A stretch of 64,000 nt of DNA from Anthracocystis setariae (taxonomy: Eukaryota > Basidiomycota > Ustilaginomycetes > Ustilaginales > Ustilaginaceae): NCBI GenBank assembly GCA_928724745.1, contig CAKMXJ010000039.1:1-64000 (forward strand), in the 5' to 3' direction. Numbering within the stretch: the stretch's first letter is position 1; every line of letters begins with the position of its first letter. The notes under the pieces are model-generated. The model saw only the letters and a list, made by a program, of their open reading frames with translations, ran no database searches and had not been told where the DNA came from. The position numbers and the translations under genes were made by a program. Of the stretch, positions 84 through 12,373 are shown piece after piece.

Positions 84-938
84 CTAGCCGTCCACCGGCA
101 TGTCCTCCACTTCCTCCAACCGCAACTCTGGCTGCTGTTGCTGTTGCTCCAGCTGCTCTGGCACAGGTGCTGGCAGCTGCGGCAGTGTCTCCCCCTCTGC
201 CTCTTCATCTGACGGGTCCTCCAATTCCTCCACCTGCTGCTCCAGAGACGGAATGGGGAAAGGATCCGGCACTTCACCAGAGGACGCGTCAGGCTGGAAA
301 CTATTTTCCATTTCTTCAGCCTCTGGCTCCAGTGCCGGCACTAGCTCAGTCTCTCCGTCTGCCTCCTCTCCCAATTCTGCTGCCGCTTCCACCTCAGCCT
401 CTGCCTCTGCCTCTGCAAAGACCACATCCAAGTTGTCCTCCACAAGCATCAGGGGAAAATCCTCTGAGCTCTCCACGCTAACCTCTGAATTTGAATCAGA
501 ATTCAATTCAATTGAATCCTCCTCTGCTAGAATTGCTGGATCCAACACGGCAAGGAAAGGGTCGGCAGGTTGCTCTTCTGCCGCAGGCGCAGTTGCAAGC
601 TCTGGACTCACCGCATCTTGAGTTACCGCATCTTGAGAGACTGCTGCTGCTGTTGTTGTTGTTGTCGTTGCTGCTGGTGCTGATGCTGCCGGTGCTGATG
701 CAGGCGTAGGTTGAGCCTGACTTGATTGAGTTGCTGCACCTTGACATTTGCGGATGCCTTGATGCTTGAGGAGTGCTGCTGCATTCATCACAACTTGTCC
801 GCAAGTACATGCTACAAGTCCAGCAGCTGCCGCTGCCTCTGGACTGACAGGCACACCACTGTGAGTCTTGCGCAAGTGGTTGGTGATGTTGCTTGCGGCA
901 TAGGCATAGTTGCATACGGGGCAGGTGATCTGCGACAT
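84..938 (-). pseudogene. Zinc-finger/acidic N-terminus of a subtelomeric gene, truncated by the telomere
   Basis: This 284-codon reading frame starts at the ATG at 938 and runs toward the telomere. Residues 1-65 hold two zinc-knuckle-like motifs: C6-C9-H21-H26, then C44-C46-H59-C65. A Gln/Ala/Pro/Thr-rich stretch and a strongly acidic Glu/Ala/Ser linker follow. It is almost identical to the first part of the gene at 8,810-11,645, but stops at the sequence MPVDG, where the other copy continues for about 690 codons. The stop TAG at 84-86 comes from the join with the telomere repeats. The C-run at 191-195 has five C here, which keeps the frame open; the other copy has six. The function is unknown; paired zinc knuckles could bind DNA or protein. 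It may be expressed as a short protein, but structurally it is a broken copy. Confidence 0.8.
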
Positions 939-1007
939 GTTGATTGAGTATGATGAGCGGTTGTCAAAAAAGGAATGCAACGGTGTTGCAAATATCAAAG
1001 CTTTTGT

Positions 1008-1632
1008 AGTGGACCGTCTTGCTGTTGAAGCTGACCGTCTTCCAGTTCTAGTAGACCGCCTTGCAATTGTAGTGGACCGTCTCCAAATTGTAGTGTTGTA
1101 GTTGACCGTCTTCCAATTGTAGCAGACCGTCTTGGATTTGTAGTGGACCGTCTTGGATTTGTAGCAGACCGTCTTGGACTTGTAGTTGACCGTCTTGGAT
1201 TTGTAGCAGACCGTCTTGGATTTGTAGTGGACCGTCTTGGATTTGTAGTGGACCGTCTTGGATTTGTAGCAGACCGTCTTGGATTTGTAGTGGACCGTCT
1301 TCCATTTGTAGCAGACCGTCTTGGATTTGTAGTGGACCGTCTTCCATTTGTAGTAGACCGTCTTGGAGTTGTAGTAGACCGTCTTCCATTTGTAGTAGAC
1401 CGTCTTGGAAATTGTAGTAGACCGTCTTGGAAATTGTAGTAGACCGTCTTGGACTTGTAGTGGACCGTCTTGGATTTGTAGTAGACCGTCTTCCCTGCTC
1501 AGCACGCTCAAAAAAGTTGAATTTGTATTGGACCGTCTTCCAATTTGTATTGGACCGTCTTGCCAGATGAATACAGACGCGTCTCACAATTCAATTGGAC
1601 CGTGTTCCAATTTTCAAATGGACCGTCTTCCA
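1008..1632. repeat. 21-bp minisatellite, about 27 units (copy 1)
   Basis: About 23 head-to-tail units of roughly 21 bp, type GTAGTGGACCGTCTTGGATTT, lie at 1,010-1,490. A few 20-bp variants (AATTTGTATTGGACCGTCTT) follow up to about 1,630. GACCGTC is the most constant part. The array starts about 70 bp upstream of the start codon at 938. Because the unit length is a multiple of three, several frames stay open on both strands; those frames are not genes. The same array lies upstream of the copy at 11,645 with fewer units (about 14 plus 5), and a decayed version lies upstream of the stub at 12,373. Confidence 0.93.
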
Positions 1633-1673
1633 GAGGGCCAGACGCGAGCTGCCCACCTGGGGATAAGCATTAG

Positions 1674-1693
1674 AACCCTAACCCTAACTAACC
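1674..1693 (+). repeat. Interstitial telomeric tract 1
   Basis: AACCCTAACCCTAACTAACC follows the junction sequence GGGGATAAGCATTAG. It has the same orientation as the terminal telomere and separates the zinc-finger/minisatellite block from the CACGTG repeat block. Confidence 0.85.
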
Positions 1694-11645: not shown

Positions 11646-11708
11646 GTTGATTGAGTATGATGAGCGGTTGTCAAAAAAGGAATGCAACGGTGTTGCAAAT
11701 ATCAAAGC

Positions 11709-12165
11709 TTTTGTAGTGGACCGTCTTGCTGTTGAAGCTGACCGTCTTCCAGTTCTAGTAGACCGTCTTGCAATTGTAGTGGACCGTCTTCCAATTGTAG
11801 CAGACCGTCTTGGACTTGTAGTGGACCGTCTTGGATTTGTAGTGGGCCGTCTTCCAGTTGTAGCAGACCGTCTTGGAGTTGTATTTGCCCGTCTTGGACT
11901 TGTAGTTGACCGTCTTGGATTTGTAGTGGACCGTCTTGGACTTGTAGTAGACCGTCTTGGATTTGTAGTGGACCATCTTGGATTTGTAGTAGACCGTCTT
12001 CCCTGCTCAGCACGCTCAAAAAAGTTGAATTTGTATTGGACCGTCTTCCAATTTGTATTGGACCGTCTTCCAATTTGTATTGGACCGTCTTGCCAGATGA
12101 ATACAGACGCGTCTCACAATTCAATTGGACCGTCTTCCAATTTTCAAATGGACCGTCTTCCAGAG
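11709..12165. repeat. 21-bp minisatellite, about 19 units (copy 2)
   Basis: Same array as 1,008-1,632, again beginning about 65 bp upstream of the start codon of its gene (11,645). It has about 14 units in the main array against 23 in copy 1, plus about five at the distal end. Loss or gain in whole units kept the flanks aligned. Confidence 0.93.
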
Positions 12166-12199
12166 GGCCAGACGCGAGCTGCCCACCTGGGGATAAGCA

Positions 12200-12373
12200 C
12201 TAGAACCCTGCAGCATGATTCTGGACCACCTGCCCACAAGAGCATGCTGTCAACCCACATGCAGCTGCTTGCGCTGCTGTAACAAAGACTCCAGCATGGG
12301 CTTTGCGGATGTGGTTGGTGATGTTGGTTGCTGAGTAGGTAAAGTGGCAGACTGGACACAGCAAGAAAGTCAT
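12200..12373 (-). pseudogene. Zinc-finger stub: third, diverged copy of the subtelomeric gene's 5' end
   Basis: From the ATG at 12,373 (just after GCC) 57 codons align without gaps to residues 1-57 of the other copies. They have the same C6-C9-H21-H26 spacing and C44-C46, and the shared words CPVC, NITNH and CGQVV. The sequence differs clearly from the two near-identical copies, so this is an older paralogue. Similarity ends at GCTGCAGGG, where the DNA joins AACCCT (12,204-12,209) and the GGGGATAAGCACTAG junction; the stop TAG at 12,200-12,202 belongs to the junction. The truncation mirrors the gene cut by the present telomere at 84. It also keeps a decayed version of the upstream repeat array. 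Confidence 0.82.

What the first reader, a model, noticed from the sequence alone, without database searches (positions are those of the whole stretch)
84..12373. Undescribed subtelomeric gene family combining zinc knuckles, an unknown core and an OTU protease fold
Four copies in 12 kb share parts of one architecture: paired zinc knuckles, acidic linker, a core of about 450 residues, an optional zinc ribbon and a C-terminal OTU domain. I recognise no named family with this combination. Known fungal subtelomeric families often encode RecQ-like helicases; none is seen here. OTU proteases are known cargo of some transposons (for example Helitrons), so a selfish element is one explanation and a host ubiquitin-related function another.
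Basis: partly seen in the sequence, partly recalled or inferred. Interest (0 to 1): 0.88.

Follow-up and report, generated by a model that had tools for sequence, protein, structure and literature searches.

The report
Chromosome-end family with relaxase-like core
The ends of this smut-related fungus's chromosomes carry dozens of copies of an apparently undescribed gene family whose core looks, by predicted shape and conserved residues rather than by sequence, like the DNA-nicking enzymes with which bacterial plasmids and conjugative elements copy themselves, often joined to a ubiquitin-cutting protease, which suggests a selfish element that lives on telomeres.

Summary
The window starts at a telomere. 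Its first 12.2 kb carry two long broken copies, one telomere-truncated copy and a finger remnant. About 68 merged loci exist in the genome; all 47 on contigs over 300 kb of known length lie within 40 kb of a contig end (9.2% of that sequence). OTU-bearing subfamilies read away from the end (18 of 19), finger-bearing and OTU-less ones towards it (26 of 26). Six of seven copy groups show purifying selection. The eight relatives that bear an organism's name are smut-related fungi.

One correction: zinc fingers (C2H2-like, not knuckles) and an intact OTU were not found in one protein.

Best reading: a telomere-associated element with a Rep_trans-like tyrosine nickase, in part with OTU, new to eukaryotes as far as I found. 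The fold match is moderate; transposition versus recombination is open.

The parts
1..81 (.). Telomere, (CCCTAA)13.5
87..938 (-). Finger-type copy (subfamily ZnA), truncated by the telomere: fingers and acidic linker only, core lost
   Evidence: start codon at 938 (-)
1003..1492 (.). 21-base tandem array (TTGTAGTAGACCGTCTTGGAT) upstream of the truncated copy
1662..1686 (-). Proximal boundary of the ZnA element: on the - strand TTAGGGTTAGGG then TTCTAATGCTTATCCCC; similar boundaries at 2132, 3457 and 4006
5405..7351 (+). OTU1-type copy: start lost, core about 5416-6549, OTU about 6929-7300; frame broken near 6.6 kb; reads away from the chromosome end
8032..8042 (.). Short interstitial telomere repeat between the OTU segment and the ZnA segment
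8038..8139 (+). Last 33 residues of a TET/JBP-like dioxygenase gene that ends at the telomere repeat; convergent with the core gene
8810..11645 (-). Long ZnA copy: two zinc fingers, acidic linker, Rep_trans-like core (about 9524-10642), zinc ribbon, degenerate OTU; frame broken near 10.9 kb; reads towards the chromosome end
11710..12000 (.). 21-base tandem array upstream of the long ZnA copy
12192..12209 (-). Proximal end of the ZnA element (GATAAGCACTAGAAC on the + strand), here joined to chromosomal DNA without a telomere tract
12297..12358 (-). Small degenerate remnant of the finger region

Best explanation
The genes belong to terminal (telomere-associated) elements of Ustilaginales. Shown: a family of about 68 loci at contig ends, with fixed polarity, proximal ends next to TTAGGG repeats, variable distal ends, several old subfamilies and purifying selection in most copy groups. 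Supported but not proven: the shared core is a Rep_trans-like (pT181/MOBT-type) tyrosine nickase in which Tyr199 attacks DNA, Asp6 and Glu252 (and perhaps Asp144 or Asp4) bind the metal, and Lys197, Arg250 and His204 assist (numbering of window 5425-6549). Inferred: the enzyme nicks at or near the TTAGGG junction, stays on the 5' end and primes copying of the element onto another chromosome end, much as Helitrons use an unrelated HUH Rep. The OTU domain, present in about half of the subfamilies, would remove ubiquitin from the protein or its partners, as proposed for such domains of Helitrons. The fingers would bind element or telomere DNA.
Confidence: 0.5

Rival explanations
1. A host subtelomeric gene family spread passively by recombination between chromosome ends (as for yeast Y' segments), with the core and OTU serving a host function such as telomere-protein or ubiquitin control; no transposition.
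For: Fixed polarity, telomere-repeat junctions and near-identical copies on many ends are expected from end-to-end recombination; Y' elements too are interposed with telomere repeats (passage). Purifying selection on long proteins.
Against: Many divergent subfamilies in one genome, 8 of 10 grouping with proteins from other sources; broken copies among them; proximal ends identical to the base behind different flanks; the OTU partner and relaxase-like core look like element cargo.
Confidence: 0.28
2. The core is a new fold or an unrelated curved beta-sheet domain, and the likeness to Rep_trans is chance.
Against: The family was named in advance and its three entries head the list; the near-invariant Asp, Tyr and RxE fall at the catalytic positions and on the matching strands.
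Confidence: 0.27
3. Relics of a known element class (Helitron, KDZ, telomere-specific retrotransposon, or telomere-linked RecQ helicase genes such as U. maydis UTASa/UTASb).
For: OTU occurs in Helitrons; end location and an OrsD domain are reported for UTASb (OrsD here only E=0.39); the zinc ribbon of 3 of 21 members weakly matches a transposase zinc ribbon (Zn_ribbon_IS1595, best E=0.02).
Against: No helicase, reverse transcriptase, DDE or HUH family among the Pfam matches shown (all matches at E<=1 of 7 members, 25 of 28 families of 21 members).
Confidence: 0.05

Closest known systems
Rep_trans / MOBT relaxases (PF02486: RepSTK1, RepDE, ICE relaxases)
   Same: Order of strands and helices around the Tyr and RxE strands; Asp on the first strand, K/R-x-Tyr and R-x-Glu conserved; best structural matches
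   Different: No sequence similarity found; motif I Asp and motif II not kept; fused in part to zinc ribbon and OTU; a nuclear fungal genome rather than bacterial elements
Rep-Arvir (RepSNJ2) of archaeal viruses and plasmids
   Same: Likewise linked to Rep_trans by predicted structure only; Tyr with Lys two residues before; metal ligands 1 and 3 essential, ligand 2 dispensable (passages read)
   Different: Archaeal; wHTH domain instead of zinc fingers or OTU; replicates viral and plasmid genomes
Helitrons with OTU or VTD domains
   Same: A Rep-type tyrosine nuclease and a deubiquitinase-type domain in one element (passages read)
   Different: Helitrons have HUH Rep plus a helicase; no helicase family was seen here and HUH was not searched as a motif
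UTASa/UTASb and telomere-linked helicases of smut fungi
   Same: Subtelomeric multicopy genes near TTAGGG repeats in Ustilaginales; an OrsD domain is reported in UTASb (passages)
   Different: RecQ-like helicase defines UTASa; none seen in this family. UTASb sequences were not compared
Telomere-targeting retrotransposons (FoTeRs; recalled: SART/TRAS, MoTeR)
   Same: Placed at telomere repeats with fixed orientation (recalled for those families; FoTeRs seen only in the listing and abstract start)
   Different: No reverse transcriptase family seen

Membership tests
Rep_trans (PF02486) | Match to the family profile | tested here: not met
   0 matches at E<=10 in the genome while B. subtilis rings as control; not among the 25 of 28 families shown for 21 members; hhalign probability 0.3%
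Rep_trans (PF02486) | Crescent, TBP-like double-lobed fold | tested here: inconclusive
Rep_trans (PF02486) | Motif N' Asp on the first strand | tested here: met
   Asp6 in 31 of 32 rows; range starts put it on D9/D46 if ungapped
Rep_trans (PF02486) | Motif I R-x-D | tested here: not met
   Arg109 31 of 32, but the Asp position is Gln in 23 of 33, otherwise G, S, N, A, L
Rep_trans (PF02486) | Motif II [T/S]-x-[Y/E]-x-G | tested here: not met
   Gly181 34 of 34; the T/S and Y/E positions are Gly in 31 and 33 of 34
Rep_trans (PF02486) | Motif III Y-x-K-x-x-E | tested here: inconclusive
   Tyr199 34 of 34; +2 basic in 21 of 34; +5 is His in 34 of 34, not Glu
Rep_trans (PF02486) | Motif IV R-x-E | tested here: met
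   Arg250 32 of 34, Glu252 33 of 34
Rep_trans (PF02486) | Metal-dependent nicking with a covalent Tyr adduct | not testable with these tools
   Needs purified protein
OTU cysteine protease (PF02338) | Profile match and catalytic DGNC and His | tested here: met
   14 of 21 members match PF02338; DGNC in 21 of 39 rows, 18 of these with the C-terminal HYE; not met in finger-bearing and OTU-less subfamilies
Helitron | HUH Rep plus helicase in one protein | tested here: not met
   No helicase family among all matches at E<=1 of 7 members or the 25 of 28 families shown for 21 members; HUH motif not searched as such
Telomere-linked RecQ helicases (UTASa type) | RecQ-like helicase domain | tested here: not met
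   (25 of 28 families shown)
Telomere-specific non-LTR retrotransposons | Reverse transcriptase | tested here: not met
   No such family or among the 25 of 28 shown

The most novel reading that the evidence does not exclude
A new class of eukaryotic mobile element: telomere-homing elements that move with a Rep_trans-fold tyrosine nickase, an enzyme type that the 2026 literature describes as bacterial and, in distant form, archaeal. Some elements carry an OTU protease, others DNA-binding fingers and a TET/JBP-like dioxygenase gene. Chromosome ends of Ustilaginales would then be built in part by serial relaxase-driven addition.
Probability: 0.35. Interest if true: 0.92.

Novelty: new variant of a known kind. 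Interest (0 to 1): 0.78.

Why it matters
If the core is a Rep_trans-like nickase, this tyrosine-nuclease type is present in all three domains, and eukaryotes have a second rolling-circle-type enzyme besides HUH. It would also mean that a DNA nickase, not a reverse transcriptase or helicase, serves a telomere-associated element, so the role of such elements in building and healing chromosome ends becomes testable with a small enzyme. Even without the mechanism, a large end-linked family with OTU domains adds to the picture of Ustilaginales subtelomeres, which the two papers that I searched for it (main text) draw with RecQ-like helicases and no mention of OTU.

Tried and rejected
Telomere-linked helicase, Helitron and retrotransposon readings: no such domain and the 25 of 28 families shown. 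Relatives in bacteria or viruses: no tblastn match in plasmids for P0001 (E<=1e-5) and for the window core (E<=10), none in phages for the L068 core (E<=10), none in IMG/VR for two single-protein queries, which find close relatives only. Sequence proof of Rep_trans kinship failed. TBP and other curved-sheet proteins are not among the best rows; that is not evidence against them. Iteron idea: the 21-base GACCGTC array is prominent in ZnA; ZnC has a few short 21-26-base repeats and the OTU types have other repeats or none, so it is not a family hallmark. In one search, L017 and L018 were left out of the ZnA group because the start string was not found in them, as were L009 and L019; 30 copies in 7 groups were used. 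The finger pattern in the script was miswritten and matched nothing; finger rows were taken from the CxxC positions instead. Five of 39 rows were dropped before the tree for short coverage.

Papers: PMC10532341, PMC4466345, PMC6167521, PMC4797284, PMC6499999, PMC13107129, PMC5714925 and PMC9741609 were seen as passages only; all others only in listings. That I found no description of the family in print rests on 7 answered searches of an open-access library, which misses most subscription papers.

Full report
WHAT IS THERE. The window is the left end of contig C34 of a 21.5 Mb, 36-contig eukaryotic genome. It begins with (CCCTAA)13.5. The first 12.2 kb are a patchwork of segments, several repeated within it (87-1385 = 10793-12091 at 93%, 2319-2864 = 4027-4572 at 99.6%, 2969-3450 = 4928-5407 at 97.5%), with short telomere repeats near 1676, 2146, 3544, 4020 and 8032. 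No such repeat (CTAACCCTA on either strand) occurs between 13001 and 64000. Eight ORFs from 14.8 kb on that I checked carry enzyme or transporter domains, one of them a transposase.

Copies of the family: a finger-type copy cut by the telomere (87-938, -), an OTU-type copy without its start and with a broken frame (5405-7351, +), a long finger-type copy with a broken frame (8810-11645, -), and a small finger remnant (12297-12358). Copies of both long types with an open frame exist elsewhere in the genome.

FAMILY IN THE GENOME. The core of the long copy has 67 matches, the OTU-type core 85 and relative P0001 86 in six-frame searches (matches are stretches, not genes, and lower bounds). Merged at 2.5 kb per strand they give 68 loci, fragments included. 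All 47 on contigs over 300 kb of known length lie within 40 kb of a contig end, a zone that makes up 9.2% of those 21 contigs; 20 of the 21 have copies. The other 21 loci are on contigs under 150 kb. No match was listed on the eight contigs whose length I do not know, some of which are long. The length of C9 was taken from its last listed telomere repeat. Contig ends are not all shown to be chromosome ends.

Polarity: loci of the OTU1, OTU2, OTU3, OTU4 and L068-type subfamilies read away from the end (18 of 18); finger subfamilies (20 of 20) and the OTU-less subfamily (6 of 6) read towards it; the one L035-type locus, which has an OTU, reads towards it, as do two unclassified loci (labels given by hand from the best match).

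SEQUENCE ANATOMY. Eleven open-frame representatives align at 27-42% identity to the first: a core of about 375 residues in all, the paired CxxC of a zinc ribbon in 8, an OTU domain with DGNC and His in 6, and two N-terminal fingers with an acidic linker in 3. The finger proteins end in an OTU-like stretch in which DGNC is lost and the His is Ala or Gly. Copies differ mainly at silent sites (pooled pN/pS 0.08-0.25 in six of seven groups, 0.71 in the seventh; 30 copies), so most of these proteins have been under selection.

WHO ELSE HAS IT. Two searches of 5.8 billion proteins gave 10 and 17 relatives, one shared (in one search only the 7,990 candidates sharing most words were scored). Eight of the 26 bear an organism's name: Pseudozyma flocculosa (3), P. 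hubeiensis (2), Kalmanozyma brasiliensis (1), Ustilago sp. (2). The first three are Ustilaginales by look-up; Ustilago I did not look up. In a tree of 34 of 39 sequences, 8 of 10 subfamilies group with a protein from another source at support 0.98-1.0; ZnA (0.59) and L035 (0.62) do so weakly.

ELEMENT BORDERS. Six copies of one finger subfamily (ZnC: L024-L029), on six different contig ends, start at the same base, TTAGGG|TTTGATGGGCAAAAAATCG, behind six different flanks; five flanks end in GGG, one in CAAC. Distal ends differ: one runs into telomere repeats and then into the start of another element type (L027), one into telomere repeats and a third segment type (L028). ZnA elements start TTAGGG|TTCTAATGCTTATCCCC; that border occurs in 23 distinct places of the window and loci held, with none to a few telomere repeats beyond it. 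L036 and L037 share (TTAGGG)3|TTACACTTGG. So segments have a fixed proximal end on telomere repeat and a variable distal end: serial addition to chromosome ends, by transposition or by recombination. Not every group shows this: the OTU1 loci held are alike up to or near the ends of the stretches fetched, and no shared border could be read.

In 9 of the 12 best-matching ZnA copies, a gene for a TET/JBP-like dioxygenase lies convergently 580-677 bases beyond the core match; in 3 of 12 it was not matched. The identification is weak but consistent: Pfam Tet_JBP at E=0.017, below cut-off, and the only two PDB matches at E<=1 are Tet-like dioxygenases, one named as Naegleria's (E=0.2 and 0.3). The window keeps only its last 33 residues.

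The ranges give a check that uses no motif: model residue 1 falls on chain residue 4 of 4cij and 41 of 4cwe/4cwc, so Asp6 falls on D9 and D46; the 4cij range ends 36 residues after both Glu252 and E196 (if no gap lies in these stretches). D9/D46 and E196/E214 are metal ligands (Carr 2016). For 4cwe the end offset does not fit without gaps. Among rows with a residue there, of 39, Tyr199 is invariant (34/34), as are Lys197 and His204, with Arg250 32/34, Glu252 33/34 and Asp6 31/32. The order Tyr-strand, two helices, RxE-strand is that described for Rep_trans. Against membership: the motif I Asp is replaced (Gln in 23 of 33), motif II is mostly lost and the motif III Glu is His. In archaeal RepSNJ2, itself tied to Rep_trans only by predicted structure, the counterpart of that Asp could be mutated with little effect while the counterparts of Asp6, Tyr199 and Glu252 were essential. 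So I do not file the family under PF02486, but hold that it plausibly works like it.

MECHANISM. Shown: location, polarity, borders of some groups, conservation. Supported: Rep_trans-like fold and site. Inferred: nicking at the telomere junction, priming of copying onto another end, protection by OTU. Helitrons, which also join a Rep nuclease to OTU or VTD domains, are the functional model. My estimates: apparently undescribed end-linked family 0.95; Rep_trans-like fold 0.65; active nickase 0.5; nickase-driven spread 0.35.

NOVELTY. None of seven answered searches of the open library listed a description of this family, as far as titles and abstract starts show; the U. maydis and S. scitamineum papers describe RecQ-like genes at ends and have no word beginning with OTU in their main text. 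PMC13107129 states that Rep_trans appeared restricted to bacteria before its archaeal relatives.

Noticed in passing
window 8038-8139; L069, L070: A TET/JBP-like dioxygenase gene lies convergent with the core gene in 9 of the 12 best-matching finger-type (ZnA) copies; Pfam Tet_JBP E=0.017, PDB best a Tet-like dioxygenase E=0.2.
   Followed up: partly
G000 C6, C7, C10, C15, C18, C26, 11-26 kb from a contig end: Helicase_C matches in long ORFs (1619-1673 aa), some of them next to other copies of the TET-like gene; possibly telomere-linked helicases with the same partner gene.
   Followed up: no
window 21772-22812 (+): Intact-looking Tc1/Sleeping-Beauty-type transposase ORF, 347 aa (DDE_3 E=1.4e-13, HTH_SB E=1.6e-12).
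   Followed up: no
window 1003-1492 and 11710-12000: 21-base tandem arrays with GACCGTC upstream of finger-type copies: 53 occurrences of the heptamer in the first 12.7 kb against 6 in the other 51.3 kb.
   Followed up: partly
window 2319-2864/4027-4572 and 2969-3450/4928-5407: Subtelomeric segments without long ORFs of the family, repeated at 97.5-99.6% identity: recent end rearrangement.
   Followed up: partly
L038, L064, L067: This OTU-less group has pN/pS 0.71 unlike the other six groups (0.08-0.25): relaxed or changed selection.
   Followed up: no
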